The notes under the pieces are model-generated. The model had not been told where the DNA came from, did not search any database, and saw only the letters and a list, made by a program, of their open reading frames with translations. Made by a program: the position numbers and the translations under genes. 64,000 nucleotides of DNA from positions 208,574 to 272,573 of the forward strand of contig CANTFK010000208.1 of assembly GCA_947646735.1 (NCBI GenBank), written 5' to 3'. Shown here piece after piece: positions 47,538-60,550 of the stretch (positions within the stretch are counted from its first letter, which is position 1; the number at the start of each line of letters is the position of its first letter). This DNA is from Peronospora farinosa. Taxonomy: Eukaryota > Oomycota > Peronosporomycetes > Peronosporales > Peronosporaceae.

Positions 47538-47740
47538 TACGCTCACAAGCTTAGTAAACTTACGGTTTAAAGAACCAAGCGCACGAGGTGCACTAGAAAC
47601 AGAGAGGCTTTGTTTTTACAACTCAAAATGAAGACTGATGTTTATATATGCATTAAGATACCAAACGCAACCTACTCAAGTACCTACACTAGATTAACTA
47701 CTGTAACAGGGCATCTAGTTACACGTAAACATTAAGTAAT

Positions 47741-48190
47741 TGTAATGGGGCACCCTCCGACTATACTGATTACAGTATAGTCTACTTTCACTGATTATAG
47801 TGAAAGCAGGTGCCTCAATTACAAGAGGCAGAGGAAGCTTTACTTCTAAACAAACGCTTAGAAGTAGAGGAAAAGAAAACTGTATTTAATATAGTTAACT
47901 ATCTTAATAAAACTAATCTGTTATAACCTATGTTAACTATATTAAACTACAACTATGTATGTTGACGACTTGCCCTCCACTCATTGCGCGCGTCCATCGG
48001 TCATTGGTCAGCGCGTTGGTTGATATGATGGCCCATATCAACCAATGAGAGGGCATCTCCAACTTCAAGGAGATCTAGGAACACTATTATTAGAAAAGGT
48101 AATATTGTCAAAATATTATTAGTTATAATAATATTTTTATTGACACTTCATATAAGTGTCAATATTATGTAACGGGCTCACCCCGTTACA
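47741..48190 (-). repeat. Gypsy LTR (3-prime in sense orientation)
   Basis: 450 bp with TG...CA ends. It is built largely of hairpins: ACTATACTG/CAGTATAGT, CTTTCACT/AGTGAAAG, TTGGTTGATATG with its mirror, ATTGACACTT/AAGTGTCAAT and GTAACGGG/CCCCGTTAC. It differs from the other LTR at several positions, mainly in its first 120 bp. Confidence 0.93.
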
Positions 48191-48205
48191 TCACCCCCCT
48201 CAACC
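48191..48205 (-). other. Gypsy polypurine tract
   Basis: Minus-strand sequence TTGAGGGGGGTGA directly abuts the LTR start TGTAACGGGG, the expected plus-strand priming site. Confidence 0.75.
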
Positions 48206-48235
48206 AATTGTCACATTAGTGACTGTTTAGTGACT

Positions 48236-50005
48236 ATGGGAAAGGAGAACTTGTTGAATTTTCTTTTAATCCAACATTTTCTCGCTATGAAAAAGTCAAT
48301 GCGCGTCGCTGCTAAGGCAGCTAAGAGCTCGGCTGCACGCCTGTGTGCAGCCGCTACTGAGGCTTCACAGCCTCAGCCAGCAGACATTAATGTGTCTGCT
48401 GGAAGTCAACATCAGCCTGCAACGCCTGTTACAGGTTCACGTAGCGCTTCGCCACGTGAAGATGTTGACCCAGAGTTAGTCGTTGACTACTCAGGTGAGT
48501 CGGATGACGCATCCGGCTCAAAGTCACCTATTCCACTCCCGGGCTCTCCCGGGGGTGATACCTCGTCGTCTAATGTTACGAAGAGGGATCGTGGTACATT
48601 GAGTGAATCAATGTACCGTGAAATGTTCGGGTCGTCTGATGAATCAGAAGACTCGCCAAACGAGTCGAAGGATAGTGACTCGGGTGGAGACCGTAAGGAT
48701 GATGTCAGTGCTTCTACTGACATCAATGCTCATAGTGTCGGTACTTCTGTTGACACTAATGCTCGTGGTGTCGGTATTTCTGTTGACACCACGCAGGAGG
48801 CTTTAGACCGCAACGTATTGCGTCTTGCTCCTGACCGCAAGCCATGGATGCTACCTAAGCATCTGCTTGATCGTTGGTCTGGAAAGACCAACGAACGGTT
48901 CCCCATACCGTTTTTTGATGCGTCAAAGCTTCATGGCCTTGACGCCAGTGCGAAGAACTTTCGCACTGAGAACGATTATTACATCGATGTATTACTTGAA
49001 CATCGATGGTATGGCCCACACAAGAAGCGTGAGGCCGACGCGTTCCTCCAATTTTGGAACGCGTTTATCACCAACGTTTTAAACGTTGGGAAAGAGGCTT
49101 GGTTTCAAAGACTTTTTGCTAGCCGCAATAAGTTTGAGAAACGAAGTACGTCCGGTGCATGCTATCGTTTGCACCGGTTATCTAGAGAGGCAGGCCTGTT
49201 ATGCCTATCTTGGGGCGACCCATGCCCGGGGTGCCTGAGCACCTCGTCAAGAGCGCCTAAGAAGGCGTACCTCCTTACTGAGCCCTGGTGGAGGGCTCGC
49301 ATCTCTTCTGAAATGCGTGAAGGGATTGCTACTTTGCAATCCCTTTACGAGCGCGCTGGGCGCTCGTTTTCCGATGGTCCTTCACCATCGGGTGCCCCTT
49401 GTCGTACTGTTCGACAAGGCCGGGAACGTCGGCCATCAGTTGAGCCCGAGGTTCCCAGCTATCCGCCGAAGGAGGATAGCCACGCCACCGGACGAGATAA
49501 CTCGTCCGACGTCCCTTCACCTCGCGGTGCTTTAGTAAGCGTTCCACGAGGAAGCGCTTCCCACCATGGGAGTCCACCAGCGGATGCGGTGGTTGAGGAA
49601 AAACCCTGTCCGATTCTTTCATCGGACTTGGCTGCTGAGTTAGACGGGTTTGCCCGTGTAACTCGTGAGCTCCGTTGTGATGTTAATCACGAACGGGATA
49701 AGCGTCGCCGCTTAGAGGACATTGTGCGACAGCTTGGGTTTGACCATGAGAAGTCTCGGGCAAACATTGCTGTCGCACTATTGGAGAATGAACAGCGGCT
49801 TCATTCTCTAAGTAACGAGCTGGCGACAGCTCGTCAGGAGATCGTCCAATATCATGGGAAGATATCATCTCTACACGACCAGGTATCGAATCTGGTTCGT
49901 GAAAACAAGAATCTGAAGGGTATTCATGAGAGTAATGGCTATCTTCGTCGTTCGAAGAAGCCGCGTACTGAACGTACGGACGAAGACGTCCCACGTAAAA
50001 CGTAG
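48236..50005 (+). CDS. Intact antisense ORF of the Gypsy element
   Basis: 589 codons from the first ATG, 46 bp inside the LTR and reading opposite to pol. The N-terminal half is Ser/Asp-rich (GSSDESEDSPNESKDSDSGG). The middle is globular-looking and Trp-rich (PWMLPKHLLDRW, ADAFLQFWNAFITNVL, WFQRLF). Residues about 460-560 form a predicted coiled coil (DKRRRLEDIVRQLGF, RLHSLSNELATARQE), and the end is basic (RRSKKPRTER). It overlaps the chromodomain and integrase tail on the other strand, where the sense frame has stops. I recognise no family. It could be a real antisense-encoded element protein or an open frame maintained by the local palindromic composition. Confidence 0.5.
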   Translation: MGKENLLNFLLIQHFLAMKKSMRVAAKAAKSSAARLCAAATEASQPQPADINVSAGSQHQPATPVTGSRSASPREDVDPELVVDYSGESDDASGSKSPIPLPGSPGGDTSSSNVTKRDRGTLSESMYREMFGSSDESEDSPNESKDSDSGGDRKDDVSASTDINAHSVGTSVDTNARGVGISVDTTQEALDRNVLRLAPDRKPWMLPKHLLDRWSGKTNERFPIPFFDASKLHGLDASAKNFRTENDYYIDVLLEHRWYGPHKKREADAFLQFWNAFITNVLNVGKEAWFQRLFASRNKFEKRSTSGACYRLHRLSREAGLLCLSWGDPCPGCLSTSSRAPKKAYLLTEPWWRARISSEMREGIATLQSLYERAGRSFSDGPSPSGAPCRTVRQGRERRPSVEPEVPSYPPKEDSHATGRDNSSDVPSPRGALVSVPRGSASHHGSPPADAVVEEKPCPILSSDLAAELDGFARVTRELRCDVNHERDKRRRLEDIVRQLGFDHEKSRANIAVALLENEQRLHSLSNELATARQEIVQYHGKISSLHDQVSNLVRENKNLKGIHESNGYLRRSKKPRTERTDEDVPRKT

Positions 50006-50504
50006 GATGCGTACGCATCCTGCGTGGCAACTCGATCGTGTATGCGTTGCCTAGGCGGCGCAATACACGAAACGGGCCGATGTACTTGGGAAACAATTTA
50101 TTGCTGCCCACGTTAGTCACTACATGTTTAGGTAGGTTTACTGTTGACAGTAAAACTAAATCACCTTCAATAAATGTCTGAGCATTTGCCCTTCCATTAT
50201 TGTCTGCGTTTCATTTTTGCTTATCCACCGCTTCCGCTATGGAATCTTGCACGAAACGGACTACCGCTTCACGAGTCAGCAGGAAATCCTCAGCTGACTC
50301 GTTGCTTTTGGCTGCAGTGCATTGTGAGTGCACTGCAGAGATATCGGTTACTAATTCAGCGAGAACAATACTGTTCTCACTTGTGATACCTCGAACGATG
50401 CTGACATCTTCAGCATCGTTATCAGTAAGAGCGTCATCGCTCTTACTTTCTTCCTCTTCACCGAAGTCGAATGGTACGACTTCGGTTACTTTCTTGTCGA
50501 CCAT
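49329..50504 (-). pseudogene. Gypsy integrase C-terminus and chromodomain, interrupted
   Basis: Continuation of pol. In one frame: an acidic linker (50,500-50,220), a TGA at 50211-50213, the GPY/F-like module (KLFPKYIGPFRVL, PTFYVGRLRPYV), a TAA at 49683-49685, then a chromodomain (FLVERLLKHRE, YLVRWRGYPPSADSWEP) ending near 49,329. The chromodomain would steer integration to marked chromatin. The two stops interrupt an otherwise continuous frame. Confidence 0.85.
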
Positions 50505-53500
50505 AACGTCGTCGCGTGATGAGCAAGAGCCAGATTGGTTCTCGCTCGAGCGAGTCTCTCCCCCCCCTTAAATTAGAGTCACTCTCTACTAAGGTGGGGA
50601 CACGTGGATGGCGAAGGCCATTCACGTAGAACGGTGTATGCGTCGTGGAGGCATGCACGGAGTTGTTGATAGCGAATTCGACCATCGACAAGAACTCATT
50701 CCAACTCGTAAACGAGTGGACGTACCCTCGAAGAATCTCTTCGAGGACGCGATTGGCGCGTTCAGTCTGACCATCAGTTTCTGGATGGTCAGAAGTAGAC
50801 ATTGTGAGCCGTGTTCCAAGTGTTTGGAACACGGAACGCCAAAACTCAGCCGTGAACCGGGGGTCCCTATCGGACACAAGTTCACGGGGTAAACCGTGCA
50901 ATCGAAAGATTGTATCGATAAACACTCGAGCACAGCCCTCTGCTGTGATCGACTCAGGTACAGCAACAAGATGTACCATCTTGCTGAACCTGTCCACAAA
51001 CACGAGAATACCATTATTCCCGTGAGCGTCTTTGGGAAACCCAAAGACGAAGTCCATTGATACGGACTCCCAGCACTCTGCCGGAACAGGTAGAGGCTGC
51101 AATGGTGCACGGAGTGAAGGACTAGGCTTCACTCGTTGACACACCTCGCAAGCACGCACGTACTTGCGCACAAACTTATACTGGCGTGGCCAGTAAAAGT
51201 CGCGACTGACCGTGAGGTAGGTCTTCTCACGGCCGCGATGCCCACTTATTGGTGCATCGTGACATTCAAACATGATCCGTAACCTGAGATCATGTTGTGG
51301 CGGTACAACGACACGAGGCGTGTCGTTGTTGACGGCTGTATAGTACAGTAAGCCGTTCCGCTGGGTGTATCGATCGAGATAAGATCGATACATGGCAGGC
51401 AAGCGCTTCTTAGCTTGCGTGGATGGGTCCTTGAGATACTCCATCAGGCGTACAAGATCATTATCTTGTGCGCATGCCCTTCTAATGTCGTCGAGTAAGC
51501 TCGACGACAAGACGCTGGTACTCAGCGTGGCGACAGTGGTGTTTACATCACTGTCGGATTGCACAGTCGGCTCTAGGTCAGGCCGACGTGAAAGAGCATC
51601 AGCGACGACGTTAAGTCGTCCCGGCTTATACTCCACGGAGAAGTTGTACTCCGCGAAGAACGACAACCATCTCGCCATTCGTTGCGAGAGGTGTGGACTA
51701 TTTACAGCCGTGCGTAGTGACGCATGGTCTGTATATACAATGAACGGTCTATCTCCTAAGAGATAGACGCGAAACTTAGCCAGTGCATACTTCATGGCAA
51801 GGAGTTTTTTGTCATGCACCGTATAATTGTGCTCGGCCGGTTGCAGCTGACGCGATTGATAACAGACGACACGCTCTGCGCCGTCTGTATCATATTGCAT
51901 CAGTGCGCAGCCGATTGCAAAATCACTGGCGTCACAGACCACATGAAATGGTCTGTCTTGATCGGCAATCGCCAATACTGGCGATTGCATCAAGCTTTGC
52001 TTGATACGTTCAAAGGAACGCTGACAATCAGCGTTCCAGTTCCACTTTACATTTTTCTTGAGTAAACAAGAAAGATGTACTGTCATTTCGGCGTAATTGC
52101 GCGAGTACTTGTGCAAATACGCAGCTAGCCAAAGGAACTTCCTTAGTCCCTTGACATCGACTGGCACTTTCCAGTCGGTGATCGCCTTGATCTTCTCTGG
52201 ATCAGGGCGTACGCCGTCCTTTCCGACGATGCACCCAAGAAGTGGTATTTCACTAGCTGCGAATATACACTTCTTGAGGTTGGCGTACAACTTATGCTCG
52301 CGCATAAGTGTAAGAACCTTACGGACGTGGAGTCTATGGACTTCCACGTCTGTTTTCCCGTCCATAGCTCGACTATGGACGAACACATCATCGAAGTAAA
52401 TCGGTGCGAATTCGCGCACCGGTCTCAATAGATGTGAAACACATCTATTGAATGTGGCTGGTGCATTACTGAGCCCTTGCGGCATCACCAACCATTCCCA
52501 GAGCATACCACTGGGAGTGCTCACTGCTGTGTACAGGATGTCCCGTTCACGCATTAGGATCTGATAGAAACCATCCATCAAATCCATGGACGAAAAGATG
52601 GTACTCTGAGACATACCATCTATGATTACGTCCTTTCTCGGTATCGGCGTTTGCGCCGGTATCGCTATCCGCCACCCTCCTGTGGCCTTGCGCACACAGA
52701 AGGTCGGAGATCTGTGAGGTGAAGTTGACTCCCTCACATGGCCCGCTGCTAGGCGATCGGCAAAGAACTTGTCGATCGCCTCGACCTGTTCCCGAGGCAG
52801 TGGCCACTGCTTCATGACACAATATTTTGTGCCAGGAACAAGGTCGATCTCGTGTCGAGTCCCTTTATCCTTAGGCAACTCACACGGAACGGATTCAGGG
52901 AATACATCTTTGAATTCGACCAAATCCTTGTACAAAGGATTTGACTTCAGCGACTCCCAGGATTGCGATGTATATCGTTCAATCCGAGTCTTCTCATCAT
53001 GGACACTTTCGTCCATTGATGAGCTGCTGAGAACCCGTTCGCTCTCGGCAAAAACTGTTGCTGACCGAATGTCAGTCATGTACTCGTCTTCTGCGACGAG
53101 CACACAGATCTGCTTGACTTTGCCACTACGCAGATCACGCAAGAACCTTTTAGGTTCTAGCGTAGGCAACTGAGGTATCTCCGAAGTTAACTTCGGAGGC
53201 GCGATCAGATCAAGCGTATAAGCGCCTACGTTTGATCCGTCATTAACCAAGACGTTCAACGTCTCGGTTACTTCCTGGGGACTTATTCCCTCAGAGCACT
53301 GGGGACTTATTCCCTCAGTGATTATTTCCTGGGGACTTATTCCCGCAGGCTCGATGGAACCTGTTCCATCGACTTCCTCAAGCTGTGGTGGCGCAACCAC
53401 AGCGAGATCCTCTACGATCAACTCTCCAGTTGATCTTGGATTACCGTGATGCCGCTTCTGGGCAACCGGTTTACTCTTCGGTGAATGCTGCTCTCTAGGC

Positions 53501-53751
53501 GAGCATTCATGTCCCGGTCCACTCGACTTATTCGAGTGGTGGACCTTCGGCACTGCCTGTGCTTGTGCACAGCCGCCGGCAGCTTGCTCCACAGCGTGAA
53601 TGTCTGTCACGCTGAGTTCTTGTGCAGTCGTACTAACGACTGAACCACAAGTGAGGCCATCACACTCACTCGTAATACATTCATACGCTTGTGAACGCTC
53701 CAAGACGTTCATCAGATGGTCATCTGATGAACAAGCGGCAGGCATCTTCAC
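50458..53751 (-). pseudogene. Gypsy RT, RNase H and integrase
   Basis: About 1,097 codons open. An N-terminal linker contains tandem EGISPQ-type repeats (53,270-53,345). RT has FCVRKATGGWRI, LVMPQGLSNAPATFNR and the active site IYFDDVFVH (about 52,385-52,405). RNase H starts VVCDASDFAIGCAL. Integrase has CEVCQRVKPSP, then MDFVFGFP, SDRDPRF and DHPETDGQTERANRVLEEIL, so the DDE triad is present. The frame runs into unrelated text after ESDSNLRGG, because an 8-base C run (50560-50567 on plus) shifts it; the proper continuation lies in the next frame. Confidence 0.9.
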
Positions 53752-53763
53752 GGTTCGATGCTG

Positions 53764-54215
53764 CTAGCTGACCCATGGCTCGTACCTTCTGAGCCATGGT
53801 AATCCTAGGATGACATCAAATTTGTCATCCAGATCAAGTACGATGAAATCATCATCGTACTTTTTGTCTTCAAGCGTGTAGTGAATTCCCACTACACGTT
53901 TCTTTACTGTTACGGATGCGCCAGTTGCAAGGCGCACCGTCATCCTCGTGGGAGGGGTCTCGCGCTCAACATATTTGAGCCTACGATCATCTAGCGATTG
54001 GCGTCGAACAAAGTTGTTCGAAGCCCCACAATCAACTAGGGCGCGAAGTGACATGTTCTTTGTCACTTCGATCTTCAATGTGATGAGGGATACCTCATCA
54101 CTGGGAGCGGCAACACACAGTGACTGTGTGTTGGGAGCAACCTTCGTCAAGAGTCCCGCGAACTCTCTTGACGTTGCTGGATCAGTAGGGCGCTCCGCCC
54201 CTACTGACCCCGAAC
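53764..54215 (-). pseudogene. Gypsy protease region
   Basis: Retropepsin-like domain with active-site text ALVDCGASNNFV and the flap-end ILGLPWLRRYEPW. It is read in the -1 frame relative to gag. A TAG at 53764-53766 falls where an aromatic residue is usual (WVS-stop-QHRT) and separates it from RT in the same frame, so a nonsense mutation is likely. Confidence 0.8.
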
Positions 54216-54222
54216 GTTTTTT
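54181..54222 (-). promoter_or_regulatory. Candidate -1 ribosomal frameshift signal at gag-pol
   Basis: Minus strand: slippery heptamer A-AAA-AAC at 54222-54216 in the gag reading frame. A 6-8 nt spacer and a stem-loop follow, with arms TCAGTAGGGGCG and CGCCCTACTGA (54181-54208). The gag stop (54201-54203) lies inside the stem. A -1 slip enters exactly the protease frame. Confidence 0.65.
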
Positions 54223-55384
54223 GATGGTCCACCACGTTGTTGCGATTTCGCAGCAACGTGGGACCCACGTCTCTGGCCCTTCTTGGCAGACGGTCGATCG
54301 TCACTCCCAGTGTTACGAGACACTGGGCGTGGGGCACTACACTCATAAGCGTAGTGGCCCAACTTCTGACAGCGATTGCACTTTTGCAATCGCTTGTACC
54401 CTAGATAGCGAGGTCGCTCACTCTCTACATAGGAAAGGTCCATTGGTTCTGGTCCTCCGCCCTCCTGTCGTCTCGGTGGACGATAGGATCCCGAGTGGAC
54501 GTGAGCCTGTTGTAGGCTAAAGTCCTCCTGTTCCGCTGCAGAGATCGCTTGATCCAGCGATTCTAGTTCCAAGCGGAACAGGTGGGTCTTGACAGGACCA
54601 TCTGTCAGACCCTTGATGAACACAGTAACCTGCGTGTGTTCATCGATTGGGTCTAGCACGATACAACTAACGAGGTATCGTACGTGTTGGACGTAAGCGT
54701 GTATATCACGCTTACCCTGTTTCAAATCCAGGAGCTCAGCCCGAGCCCTGAATTCAGCGCGAGGCGGTTCAAACGTGTGTTTGAGCCGCACCTTGAAGAC
54801 TTCATACGTTGGGAAAACGTATGGGTCGTGCAGTTTAAGCCCTAAGGCCCAAGCTTTGGCACGTCCTGCCAAGTTCGACATGGCGAACTTGACCTTCATC
54901 GCATCGTCATCGATGCGACGAGCCTCAATGGCATCGTCGAGCTCGACGAACCATCTCAACAAGGAGTCGCTTTAGACTGCCTTGTACTTGGAGACATCAA
55001 TCTTCAAGGACTCGGGTCGACGTGCATACGCCGACCCGGCAGCAACAGCACTAGCCTGCTGTTGTCTCAACAGTTCAGACTGTTGAGCACCCTGCTGCAT
55101 CAACAAGTCAGCTTGTTGAGCGCCTTGTTCTCTCAACAGTTCAACCTGTTGAGAACTTGCTCCTCTAGCAAGGTGAGTTTCTTTACAACTTCGTCAAGTT
55201 CATGTTGTATGAACTTGGCGATGGTTGCATGTTGGTCGTCTCCGCTAAGAGAGAGCAACATGGCACCAACGGCAGGGTTGCCGATTGTTTCAGCCATACG
55301 CTGAACCGCATTCCATTCGAGATCACTCAAATGGCGGAAATCATCACGCGTTGCGTGATGACGTTCATCACCCGCTGATTCCAT
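54201..55384 (-). pseudogene. Gypsy gag, interrupted
   Basis: Retrotrans_gag-type capsid and a CCHC knuckle (CNRCQKLGHYAYEC near 54,340). The first in-frame ATG is at 55384 (MESAGDERHHATRDDF). A 1-nt shift near 55,150 moves the frame into repeats of the type QQxxLLxQQGA, and a TAA at 54972-54974 cuts KYKAV from SDSLLRWFVELDD. Downstream the frame is open to 54201 and ends at the frameshift signal. Confidence 0.82.
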
Positions 55385-55411
55385 AGCGGGTGGTGCGGTG
55401 GTCGCTGAACG

Positions 55412-55429
55412 GACCACGAAGTGCTACCA
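55412..55429 (-). other. Gypsy primer-binding-site candidate
   Basis: TGGTAGCACTTCGTGG starts two bases after the LTR on the sense strand. It would pair with the 3-prime CCA end of a tRNA; the tRNA was not identified. Confidence 0.5.
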
Positions 55430-55431
55430 GG

Positions 55432-55881
55432 TGTAGTGGGTCACCCTCCAACTATACTGATTACAGTATAGTCTACTTTCACTGATTACAGTGAAAGCAG
55501 GTGCCTCAATTACACGAGGCAGAGGAAGCTTTACTTCTAAACAAACGCTTAAAAGTAGAGGAAAAGAAAACTGTATTTAATATAGTTAACTATCTTAATA
55601 AAACTAATCTGTTATAACCTATGTTAACTATATTAAACTACAACTATGTATGTTGACGACTTGCCCTCCACTCATTGCGCGCGTCCATCGGTCATTGGTC
55701 AGCGCGTTGGTTGATATGATGGCCCATATCAACCAATGAGAGGGCATCTCCAACTTCAAGGAGATCTAGGAACACTATTATTAGAAAAGGTAATATTGTC
55801 AAAATATTATTAGTTATAATAATATTTTTATTGACACTTCATATAAGTGTCAATATTATGTAACGGGCTCACCCCGTTACA
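55432..55881 (-). repeat. Gypsy LTR (5-prime in sense orientation)
   Basis: 450 bp, same length and termini as the other LTR, followed by the GTAAT target duplication at 55882-55886. Contains the same hairpin series. Confidence 0.93.
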
Positions 55882-57480
55882 GTAATATACTTAATGTTTG
55901 GTCTAAACGTATCCGTGATTACTTTTGACCTGTCACTTGGGTGCGATACACAAATGTGATCCACCCTCGTGAATGTGATCTCCATTGATGGATTCACATG
56001 AGAAGTGATAACGCTAGTTAAAGCTAGGCATCGCGACGTCTCAGAAGGACGTCAGTTGCGATCTTAAATCTAGATTTAAGATCATGCGACAGGATACGCT
56101 TCTAAAGAGCCGCGTATCCGATCTATATGTATATATATATATATATATATAGCCAATCAGTAGTTAAGTATATATTAAGTTATAATTAATTAAATATAGC
56201 TCAGTCTTGAATTTGCTAAATCAAAAGCACCACGCACGAGAAGCCGAAAAGCTTCTACGTGACGTCGGTGACTTCTTGTCTTAAAAGTTCGTTGCACTCT
56301 CGCTTAAGCGAGAGGCAACTGGTGGTACGACTGCTTAAGCAGTCGACCAACCTCCTAAACACCCTCTCACGCGAAGGTAAGACGGTCTAACCGCTTTCTC
56401 GCTTGTGCATAAGTTATGTGCTCGTAGTACGAGGCAACTTCGTAGAAGTGCCCGTCTACAACTACTATAACAGTAACAAAAATATGCAGACTTCTTTATT
56501 GCACGACGTGTCGTCCGAACATCTGTGTATGATGTACTTGGTACAGCGATACCGATCATCGAATCCTAACCGATATGACACGGCTGGATCGAATACCGTA
56601 TCTTAATGCTCATACTTAATACTTCCTCCAAGAAAAGCGTCAAGAATACGTATATGTTCATAGAATTACAAACATGACATAATTTTGGGAATAACCTTCC
56701 AACCGTCGTGTAACTTCGTTGTACTCTCCCCACCAGACTGGCGTTACCACCTAGCGTCATTCGATACATTACTCAAAGAGGTTGAGTAGCATGAAAATTT
56801 AAAACTAACGGTTGTTGTAACGGGGTTACACGACGGTTGTAGCGTCTTTCTGAGAGTTTACGGTTGAACTCCCCTTTGTATTGCATATAATGCATTTTGA
56901 TACTTCTCTTTAGAGAGTTATTAAGTATGAGCGTTAAGATACGGTATTCGGTGATACCGTATCTTATCGATCAGGATTCGATAATCGATAACGCTGTATT
57001 AAGTACATCATACACAGATGTTTAGACGATACGTCGTCCAATAGCAAAGTCTGCATATAATAATTACTATTATAGTAATTAATCTAGTGTAGTGTACTTA
57101 GAGTAGGACTATTCATAAAATCTTAAAGCATAAATAAAATAAGTTCTCCTTTTGAGTTTAAGATCGCAAGTCGTTCTGACTTGCTCTCTTGTGCACTTCG
57201 TGCGTTGGTTCTCTGAACCCCTAAGCTGCTAGCTTGTTCTTGCACTCTGTGCGTTGGTTCTCTGAACCTTAAGCTTATTGCTTGCTGACTAAAAGTCTCT
57301 TTCCTATTTCCTTAGAACAGGGTGACTTTCAGTCGTTTAATTAGTTCCTTAGAACTAAGTGGCTTTTAGCCTTAACTCTATTTAGTTCTCTAGAACTAAG
57401 AGGCTTCCGGCCTAAAGTCTTCCTCTGGCTAAAGAGCTGTGCAGCTCCGCTACAGTCGTTCACAGTGCACACTCATATGA
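55882..57480. repeat. Older hairpin-rich repeat into which the Gypsy inserted
   Basis: Non-coding sequence full of palindromes, for example ATCTTAAATCTAGATTTAAG with its mirror, CTCTCGCTTAAGCGAGAG and CGACTGCTTAAGCAGTCG. It includes a TA run near 56,120-56,150 and a large imperfect inverted repeat (arms about 56,480-56,625 and 56,915-57,060). Its right part (57,080-57,465) is a diverged inverted copy of 47,330-47,697. No ORF of note. Confidence 0.7.
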
Positions 57481-59636: not shown

Positions 59637-60550
59637 TCACGTGTGACGGATTCCGATACGATTAATCAAGCCAACGTAAAACACTGGATGCGTACGCAAT
59701 TTGTGAGGCAAACTTAGCATATACGCTAAGCTCTTCTTGTTCAATACCGTGAAGGATCCAATAAATCGTGTACGCAGCTTTGTCTTAAAGACAGTCAACA
59801 ACACTTTATTAGAAAGGTTCCTAGCACTAAGTAAGACTTGGTCTACGACATCACAATAATTAATACAAGCTATGCCTTTAGAACTCGCACATTCTTTTTT
59901 ATCTTGGCTATCAGCCATTGCGTCACGCACATGCCGTAAGACATTCAACCGCGTCGTTAGAAACGCGCTTACCTGTTTTTTAACAGCAAGAGGGCTGACA
60001 CCAGCAAGCCGATCGGCAACCTCTCCCTCACCAAGCCCTGAACCACGGAGTGGTAGCGTTAATGGAACGCATGAGTGCGTGAGGCTGTTCAAATAGAACG
60101 TATAGCCGGTAGAGGCGTGTACAGAATTATTGAGTGCGAACTCAATAACAGAAAGCATAGAGCTCCAACACTTAGGCGTTCAGCACAAACGCTGCGGAGG
60201 ATATCCTCATCGACGCGACTAATACGTTCAGTTTGACCATCGGTCTGCGGATGATCCGCTGTGGACATGTCCAATCGGGTGCCTAGCACCTGGAAGACGA
60301 ACTTCCAAAACTTAACCGTGAAACGAGAATCACGGTCGGAGACAATTGCCACTGGCAAGCCATGTTGGCGAAACACTCGATTTATAAACAGCTGTGATGT
60401 ACCTTCACCATCTATCGAGTCTAAAACGGCCGCTAAGGAAGCCATATTGCTCAAAACATTCACTAAAGACCATAATACCTGTGGTGAAGTGCCAAGGAAA
60501 TCAGAGCTTAAAGGAAACAGAAAGAGGCGGCAGGAGAATTTTCGGTCACT
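59637..60550 (-). pseudogene. Degenerate Gypsy integrase fragment
   Basis: The core includes INRVFRQHGLPVAIVSDRDS and MSTADHPQTDGQTE (about 60,460-60,230), then shifts frame near 60,160 into FALNNSVHASTGYTFYLNSL. It ends in a GPY/F-like module (RFIGSFTVLNKKSLAYML, HPVFYVGLINRI). It is homologous to the integrase of the 47.7-55.9 kb element but clearly a different, older lineage. RT and gag are absent. Confidence 0.8.

What the first reader, a model, noticed from the sequence alone, without database searches (positions are those of the whole stretch)
47741..55881. A retrotransposon whose coding sequence is saturated with perfect hairpins
Perfect inverted repeats with short loops follow one another through LTRs, gag, pol and the antisense ORF. 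Checked examples: 48377-48386/48393-48402 (10 bp), 48593-48602/48608-48617 (10 bp), 48946-48954/48960-48968 (9), 49320-49329/49336-49345 (10), 50726-50734/50738-50746 (9), 50809-50819/50824-50834 (11), 51027-51036/51040-51049 (10), 51306-51315/51319-51328 (10), 51487-51495/51500-51508 (9), 51966-51974/51979-51987 (9), 52015-52024/52028-52037 (10). Chance alone predicts roughly 0.1 perfect 8-bp stems with 3-10 nt loops per kb (8 loop sizes x 1000 / 4^8); here stems of this size occur about every 30-50 bp. The host genes and the adjacent Copia element do not look like this on spot checks. Because the stems run through conserved pol motifs, codon choice has been bent to make them. Possible causes are quasi-palindrome correction by template switching during reverse transcription, or selection for a structured RNA genome. 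I know of no described element with this property.
Basis: seen in the sequence. Interest (0 to 1): 0.92.

Follow-up and report, generated by a model that had tools for sequence, protein, structure and literature searches.

The report
Retrotransposon genes packed with hairpins
A jumping gene in what looks like a downy mildew genome has its whole sequence, genes included, arranged so that it can fold back on itself into about ninety small perfect hairpins, and comparison of its copies suggests that selection kept those hairpins intact.

Summary
The Ty3/Gypsy element at 47741-55881 holds 88 perfect stems of 8 bp or more (loops 3-12) in 8.1 kb, against 12 in the 47.7 kb to its left and 7-13 in shuffles of the whole window. 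In pol, 29 stems stand against 0.82 in synonymous shuffles; the neighbouring Copia has 0. Spacing is about one per 92 bp, not 30-50. The trait differs between families of the same genome: the focal family and a non-sister Gypsy family (C) have a folding-energy excess of 43% and 31%, host DNA about 0; the highest vertebrate RNA virus value quoted in one paper is 23.4%. Among 36 other copies, variants shared by several copies avoid stems while private ones do not, and stem variants in three or more copies are 10 GU-preserving on the sense strand, 0 AC, 1 other. Best reading: selection for pervasive self-pairing, probably in genomic RNA, like genome-scale ordered RNA structure but stronger. Against a purely sense-RNA cause: predicted pairing is poor in GU and equal on both strands. 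Template-switch correction is disfavoured, not excluded.

The parts
47741..55881 (-). Complete LTR retrotransposon insertion of family F (sense on the minus strand); hairpins along its whole length
   Evidence: 88 perfect stems of 8 bp or more; LTR repeats
47736..47740 (.). Left copy of the 5-bp target-site duplication GTAAT
   Evidence: read directly
55882..55886 (.). Right copy of the 5-bp target-site duplication GTAAT
   Evidence: read directly
55432..55881 (-). 5' LTR, 450 bp, six differences from the 3' LTR
47741..48190 (-). 3' LTR, 450 bp
54201..54962 (-). gag (capsid and zinc knuckle), listed ORF
   Evidence: PF03732, PF19259, PF00098; 7 stems against 0.32
53764..54150 (-). aspartic protease, listed ORF
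   Evidence: PF08284; 7 stems against 0.22
50458..53751 (-). RT-RNase H-integrase (1097 aa, listed ORF); lacks a short conserved stretch of RT that relatives have, so this copy is probably defective
   Evidence: PF00078, PF17917, PF17919, PF17921, PF00665; alignment A1; 29 stems against 0.82
49683..50120 (-). SH3-like tail of the polyprotein in a separate listed ORF
   Evidence: PF24626
48230..50005 (+). Antisense ORF of 591 aa, no Pfam family; the checked part (334 codons) has no stop in 9 of 15 copies and one stop in 6 of 15
   Evidence: 19 stems against 0.78
55890..56460 (+). LTR-like sequence of a second structured Gypsy family (C), beside the insertion
   Evidence: 59 listed matches in the genome, 40 of 1,725 candidates scored; L061 carries two copies around gag-pol

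Best explanation
The element is a Ty3/Gypsy LTR retrotransposon whose nucleic acid has been shaped by selection, mostly through synonymous codon choice in its genes and more freely in its non-coding parts, to fold into a chain of short local hairpins along its whole length. Shown: the hairpins, their excess over codon-preserving shuffles, their presence throughout the copies read, and the scarcity of shared stem-breaking variants while private ones are spread evenly. Inferred: that the folding molecule is the sense genomic RNA, and that the benefit is a compact RNA that is shielded from small or antisense RNAs and nucleases, or packs well into virus-like particles. [quoted passage not shown]
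For: Synonymous shuffles remove the stems; folding excess over dinucleotide shuffles 43.5% in gag-pol and 46.7% in the 3' part, two further copies 44.7% and 45.4%, host DNA -0.6%. Shared variants per site: stems 39/1147, flanks 299/4685, loops 32/373 (stem against flank p 5e-5), while singletons per cell are 0.0069, 0.0076 and 0.0101. Stem variants in 3 or more copies: 10 GU-type, 0 AC-type, 1 transversion, against 45, 53 and 24 outside stems (p 0.0006 and 0.0013); GU:AC 12:0, 8:0, 7:2, 6:2, 6:1 when other copies define the stems. Stem codons are about as conserved in protein as flanks (0.654 against 0.680, p 0.16). The wobble-to-wobble codon phase is under-used (13 of 78; sum over; p 0.0016). 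In family C LTRs one pair is C-G in 14, U-A in 8 and C-A in 1 copies with the rest U-G, and another goes from G-C through G-U (5) to A-U (3).
Against: Predicted pairs are poorer in GU than shuffles on both strands in all five families, and with GU forbidden the excess is the same on both strands (F 57.1 and 57.9%): sense-RNA selection alone should leave GU pairs and a strand difference. Stems of the focal copy with one internal mismatch are AC 13, GT 4 of 34, most of them the same in the other copies read. In C LTRs shared variants in paired sites lean to AC (9:1, 10:5, 6:0, 13:3, 9:2, 8:1 over six structure donors). Shared stem variants in only 2 copies are 11 GU, 8 AC, 9 transversions. The depletion is not significant in the 3' part (p 0.52), and in gag-PR loops are not enriched (1/125). 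B1 copies show no depletion (4/376 paired, 6/996 unpaired). Compensated changes are almost absent in F (1 cell against 299 one-sided breaks), and few F stems persist in other families. No function was measured.
Confidence: 0.55

Rival explanations
1. Mutational origin: during reverse transcription the nascent strand folds back and uses its own earlier arm as template, so quasi-palindromes are repeatedly made perfect (template-switch or quasi-palindrome correction); purifying selection on the proteins removes harmful cases.
For: Strict Watson-Crick pairing equal on both strands; stems in coding and non-coding parts alike; confined to certain element families rather than host DNA; stems gained in single copies arise by one (54) or two (4) substitutions, which correction of a near-perfect stem would also give.
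Against: 0 of 438 clusters of differences are exact inverted copies of sequence within 60 nt (weak for one-base corrections). 0 of 39 shared stem variants are doubled on the partner arm, although two-way correction strong enough to remove about 34 variants (my estimate) should double about half of them. GU-type bias of shared stem variants. The wobble-to-wobble phase is below a third (13 of 78), where one-arm overwriting predicts about 29%; strict two-arm synonymous change predicts about 7.5%, so this test lies between the two.
Confidence: 0.2
2. Selection on hairpins in the antisense strand or in DNA: antisense transcripts, single-stranded minus-strand cDNA in the particle, or extruded cruciforms.
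For: Strand symmetry and GU scarcity; one-mismatch stems AC 13, GT 4, an AC on the sense strand being a GT wobble on the other; C-LTR shared variants lean to AC; antisense folding excess is above sense in families A (16.6 against 8.8%), C (36.8 against 31.0%) and B1 (13.5 against 11.1%); an antisense ORF exists.
Against: In F the shared stem variants are GU-type on the sense strand, 10 to 0, robust to the copy used; F has no strand difference (43.5 and 43.0%). Cruciform selection in the chromosome would not explain why host DNA and the window's Copia lack the pattern.
Confidence: 0.17
3. Chance, base composition, codon usage or an assembly artefact.
For: None found.
Against: Dinucleotide and synonymous shuffles; all 20 loci brought in by the pol search are rich in stems, 7.4-12.5 per kb, while six family A loci in the same assembly have 0-0.6 per kb.
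Confidence: 0.01

Closest known systems
[quoted passage not shown] passages read)
   Same: Many consecutive energetically favoured stem-loops through coding sequence; pairings poorly conserved between relatives; paired runs kept short (here 12 bp at most).
   Different: An LTR retrotransposon, not an RNA virus; excess 43% against 23.4% for the highest vertebrate RNA virus quoted; isolated perfect hairpins; strand-symmetric and GU-poor.
Ordinary oomycete Ty3/Gypsy elements (family A here; Peronospora, Phytophthora and Globisporangium pol proteins)
   Same: Gag, protease, RT-RNase H-integrase and SH3-like tail; about 55-60% amino-acid identity in pol to A, B and C, 96% to a Peronospora effusa protein.
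   Different: Family A has 0-0.6 perfect stems of 8 bp per kb but an excess of exactly 5-bp stems. DNA of the other species could not be read here, so their structure is unknown.
Quasi-palindrome correction or template-switch mutation (general knowledge; a search naming it returned no paper)
   Same: Perfect short stems with short loops, strand-symmetric.
   Different: No inverted-copy clusters and no doubled changes among shared stem variants.

Membership tests
Ty3/Gypsy LTR retrotransposon | Two LTRs, TG...CA ends, short target-site duplication | tested here: met
   450-bp LTRs with 6 differences; TGTAA...TTACA; GTAAT on both sides
Ty3/Gypsy LTR retrotransposon | Gag, protease, then RT-RNase H before integrase | tested here: met
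   Pfam order along the minus strand
Ty3/Gypsy LTR retrotransposon | tRNA primer-binding site | not tested
   No tRNA gene in the window; the site next to the 5' LTR was not matched to a tRNA
[quoted passage not shown]
   F gag-pol mean 43.5%, minimum 31.0% over 12 windows; threshold from a passage of PMC3950689
[quoted passage not shown]
   0 of 36 F stems fully paired in B1, B2, A or C (C only partly covered); 3 of 22 B1 stems fully paired in B2
[quoted passage not shown]
   Shared variants favour sense GU; GU scarcity and strand symmetry do not
[quoted passage not shown]
   LTR retrotransposon; hence 'works like', not 'is a member'
Quasi-palindrome correction / template-switch mutation | Clustered changes copied from the opposite arm | tested here: not met
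   0 of 438 clusters; low power for single-base corrections
Quasi-palindrome correction / template-switch mutation | Stem changes spread to the partner arm | tested here: not met
   0 of 39 shared stem variants doubled

The most novel reading that the evidence does not exclude
Several Gypsy families of one oomycete have rebuilt whole coding sequences into strictly Watson-Crick self-paired chains, more than once, each with its own preferred geometry (7-12 bp stems in F, 7-9 bp in B1 and B2, exactly 5 bp in A, long bulged helices in C), at levels above the RNA viruses quoted here. The strictness on both strands would then mark a nucleic-acid-level arms race or copying mechanism not yet described for retroelements.
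Probability: 0.35. Interest if true: 0.9.

Novelty: new variant of a known kind. Interest (0 to 1): 0.78.

Why it matters
Pervasive structure in coding sequence is known from RNA viruses, where its purpose is debated. Finding it about twice as strong in LTR retrotransposons, with strengths that differ between families of one genome and with many decayed copies as a neutral control, gives a natural experiment on why genomes fold themselves. It could make shielding from RNAi, particle packing and reverse-transcriptase-driven mutation separable hypotheses. It would also mean that synonymous sites of such elements are not neutral, which bears on codon-based dating and annotation.

Tried and rejected
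Tried without result: a viral-contig scan for relatives with DNA (one pattern match, none confirmed); Rfam on 40-64 kb (none at gathering score); ARAGORN (none); literature searches for hairpin-rich or structured LTR elements (searches returned nothing, the rest were seen as listings only). A first projection of copies used contig orientation and gave empty rows for minus-strand loci; it was redone with both orientations. There 14 loci were dropped (13 overlapping other loci, and L001, the focal copy itself) together with the 10 loci of other families, leaving 36 copies; L017 and L018 lie close on one contig and often share variants. The consensus-structure count on C-family LTRs is biased towards conserved columns, so it was repeated with single-copy structures; one divergent LTR (L092) was dropped in both. 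The recount corrected my first tally of stems by place (88, 12 and 15).

Rejected: chance or composition; a recurring loop motif (no loop sequence occurs more than 3 times among 101 hairpins). Not resolved: sense RNA against antisense or DNA; why shared stem variants sit more often in the 3' arm (28) than the 5' arm (11), while singletons are even (107 and 103; my sums).
Full report
OBSERVATION. Perfect stems of 8 bp or more with 3-12-nt loops number 115 in the window against 7-13 in five shuffles; 88 lie inside 47741-55881, 12 to the left and 15 to the right. Synonymous shuffles of each reading frame remove them (pol 29 to 0.82), so codon order, not protein or codon usage, makes them. The window's Copia has none. 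Two statements need correction: spacing is about 92 bp, and catalytic motifs are mostly outside stems.

ANATOMY. The element lies on the minus strand: 5' LTR 55432-55881, gag, protease, RT-RNase H-integrase, SH3-like tail, an antisense ORF, 3' LTR 47741-48190, with GTAAT on both sides. This copy is probably defective: its reading frames are split and RT lacks a short stretch that relatives keep. The nearest protein is annotated in Peronospora effusa (96%), so the genome (46.85 Mb, 274 contigs) is probably that species or a close relative (inference). The pol search listed 53 matches with 42 of 6,212 first-look candidates scored, so copy numbers are lower bounds.

FAMILY COMPARISON. Loci of the same genome gave five Gypsy families (F the focal one, A, B1, B2, C) and three Copia elements. 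Perfect stems of 8 bp or more per kb in pol: F 8.8, B1 4.2, B2 3.1, A 0.3, C 0.6; Copia 0, 0.5, 1.0. Folding-energy excess (MFED) in 350-nt windows against dinucleotide shuffles, sense strand: F gag-pol 43.5%, C 31.0%, B1 11.1%, A 8.8%, B2 7.5%, Copia 2.2, -2.3 and 8.2%, host -0.6% over 29 windows. Family C has few perfect stems, but its fold shows long helices broken by bulges, and the excess runs along the 8.2-kb locus at 22-65%. Family A has an excess of exactly 5-bp stems (65 against 23.1), mostly with 3-5-nt loops. In a 16-row tree C groups with A (89/93, not strongly supported) and F with metagenomic and Peronospora matthiolae relatives, so the two strongly self-paired families are not sisters there. 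None of 36 F stems is fully paired in the other four families (C partly covered). B1 and B2 (72% DNA identity) share 3 of 22 B1 stems perfectly, one with a compensating change.

EVOLUTION WITHIN THE FAMILY. Thirty-six further copies were projected on the focal element; depth is up to 37 with the focal copy around RT-RNase H, about 14-20 in gag and the 3' part, and too low in the 5' LTR. Variants found in one copy, mostly mutations after insertion (inference), fall evenly: 0.0069 per cell in stems, 0.0076 in flanks, 0.0101 in loops. Variants shared by two or more copies, which passed through active elements, are halved in stems (39/1147 against 299/4685, p 5e-5); loops have 32/373. By region: UTR-gag-PR 5/376 against 42/1008 (p 0.007; loops there only 1/125), pol 24/528 against 199/2593 (p 0.009; loops 25/168), 3' part 10/243 against 58/1084 (p 0.52). 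At third codon positions of pol the shared rates are 0.044 in stems, 0.114 in flanks, 0.255 in loops. Selection on pairing predicts this, with private mutations as the control. Family A points the same way (4/1076 paired against 18/1779 unpaired; singletons 70 and 121; no test computed), B1 does not (4/376 against 6/996). In C LTRs the depletion has p from 0.0003 to 0.097 over six structure donors.

WHICH MOLECULE. Shared stem variants in three or more copies are 10 GU-type, 0 AC-type and 1 transversion, against 45, 53 and 24 outside stems; in two copies they are 11, 8 and 9. The bias holds when other copies define the stems. That points to sense RNA. Against it, predicted pairing is GU-poor on both strands, and with GU forbidden the excess is nearly equal on both strands in all five families; one-mismatch stems are AC 13, GT 4 of 34; C-LTR shared variants lean to AC, although two C-LTR pairs show GU intermediates on the sense strand. 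Strong selection for stability could replace GU by Watson-Crick pairs, but does not explain AC exceeding GT. I keep sense RNA as the most likely carrier and antisense or DNA as a live rival.

MUTATION OR SELECTION. Hairpin-templated copying would give strict pairing and strand symmetry. It should also leave clusters copied from the other arm (0 of 438) and doubled changes (0 of 39). Both tests are limited: correction of a near-perfect stem changes a single base, and 54 of 58 stems gained in single copies arose by one substitution. Stems favour the codon phases in which a wobble base faces a fixed base: 35, 13 and 30 for phases 0, 1 and 2 (my sum over F, B1 and B2). A calculation on artificial random codons gives 0.0239, 0.0031, 0.0145 if both arms adjust synonymously, and 0.00125, 0.00116, 0.00154 if one arm overwrites the other. 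The data lie between the strict models, so this test supports selection only weakly. Protein conservation in arms is close to that in flanks (0.654, 0.680; loops 0.548), so the hairpins cost little protein change.

COMPARISON WITH THE KNOWN. The phenomenon resembles GORS: many consecutive stem-loops through coding RNA, with pairings not conserved between relatives. In the passages read of PMC7642675, HCV lies at 7.5-10.7%, human pegivirus 12.5%, sarbecoviruses about 15%, and the highest vertebrate RNA virus at 23.4%, with 350-base fragments; a local peak above 50% is reported there for one coronavirus gene. In PMC3950689 the threshold is 3% and the transcripts range from -3.6 to 16.0%. My shuffles and steps are similar, not identical. 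Searches joining retrotransposons with GORS, folding energy, hairpins or palindromes listed no paper whose title or abstract start describes this in an LTR element; most subscription papers are outside the library.

VERDICT. Real, strong, family-specific and apparently under constraint: a retrotransposon analogue of GORS of unusual strength. The function (shielding from RNAi or nucleases, packing) is inferred, and the mutational and antisense/DNA readings stay open.

Noticed in passing
55890-57060 and L061: LTR of another Gypsy family (C) next to the insertion, partly made of perfect palindromes; behind it 56460-57060 holds a larger imperfect inverted repeat (about 83%, from matches of the query to its own opposite strand). 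The C element is self-paired along its whole locus with long bulged helices.
   Followed up: partly
L051, L047, L056-L059: Family A pol has 65 stems of exactly 5 bp with short loops where 23 are expected, with little excess at 6-8 bp: another geometry of the same kind of bias.
   Followed up: partly
L101: One of three Copia elements read has a modest folding excess (8-10%), so weak structure may reach beyond Gypsy.
   Followed up: no
48230-50005: A 591-aa antisense ORF without Pfam family; its checked half has no stop in 9 of 15 copies and one in 6 of 15, so it may be a real antisense gene.
   Followed up: partly
focal family copies: Shared stem variants lie more often in the 3' arm (28) than in the 5' arm (11), singletons evenly (107 and 103) (sums); unexplained.
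   Followed up: no
59637-60158: Fragment on the minus strand whose translation resembles the integrase end of Gypsy pol.
   Followed up: no
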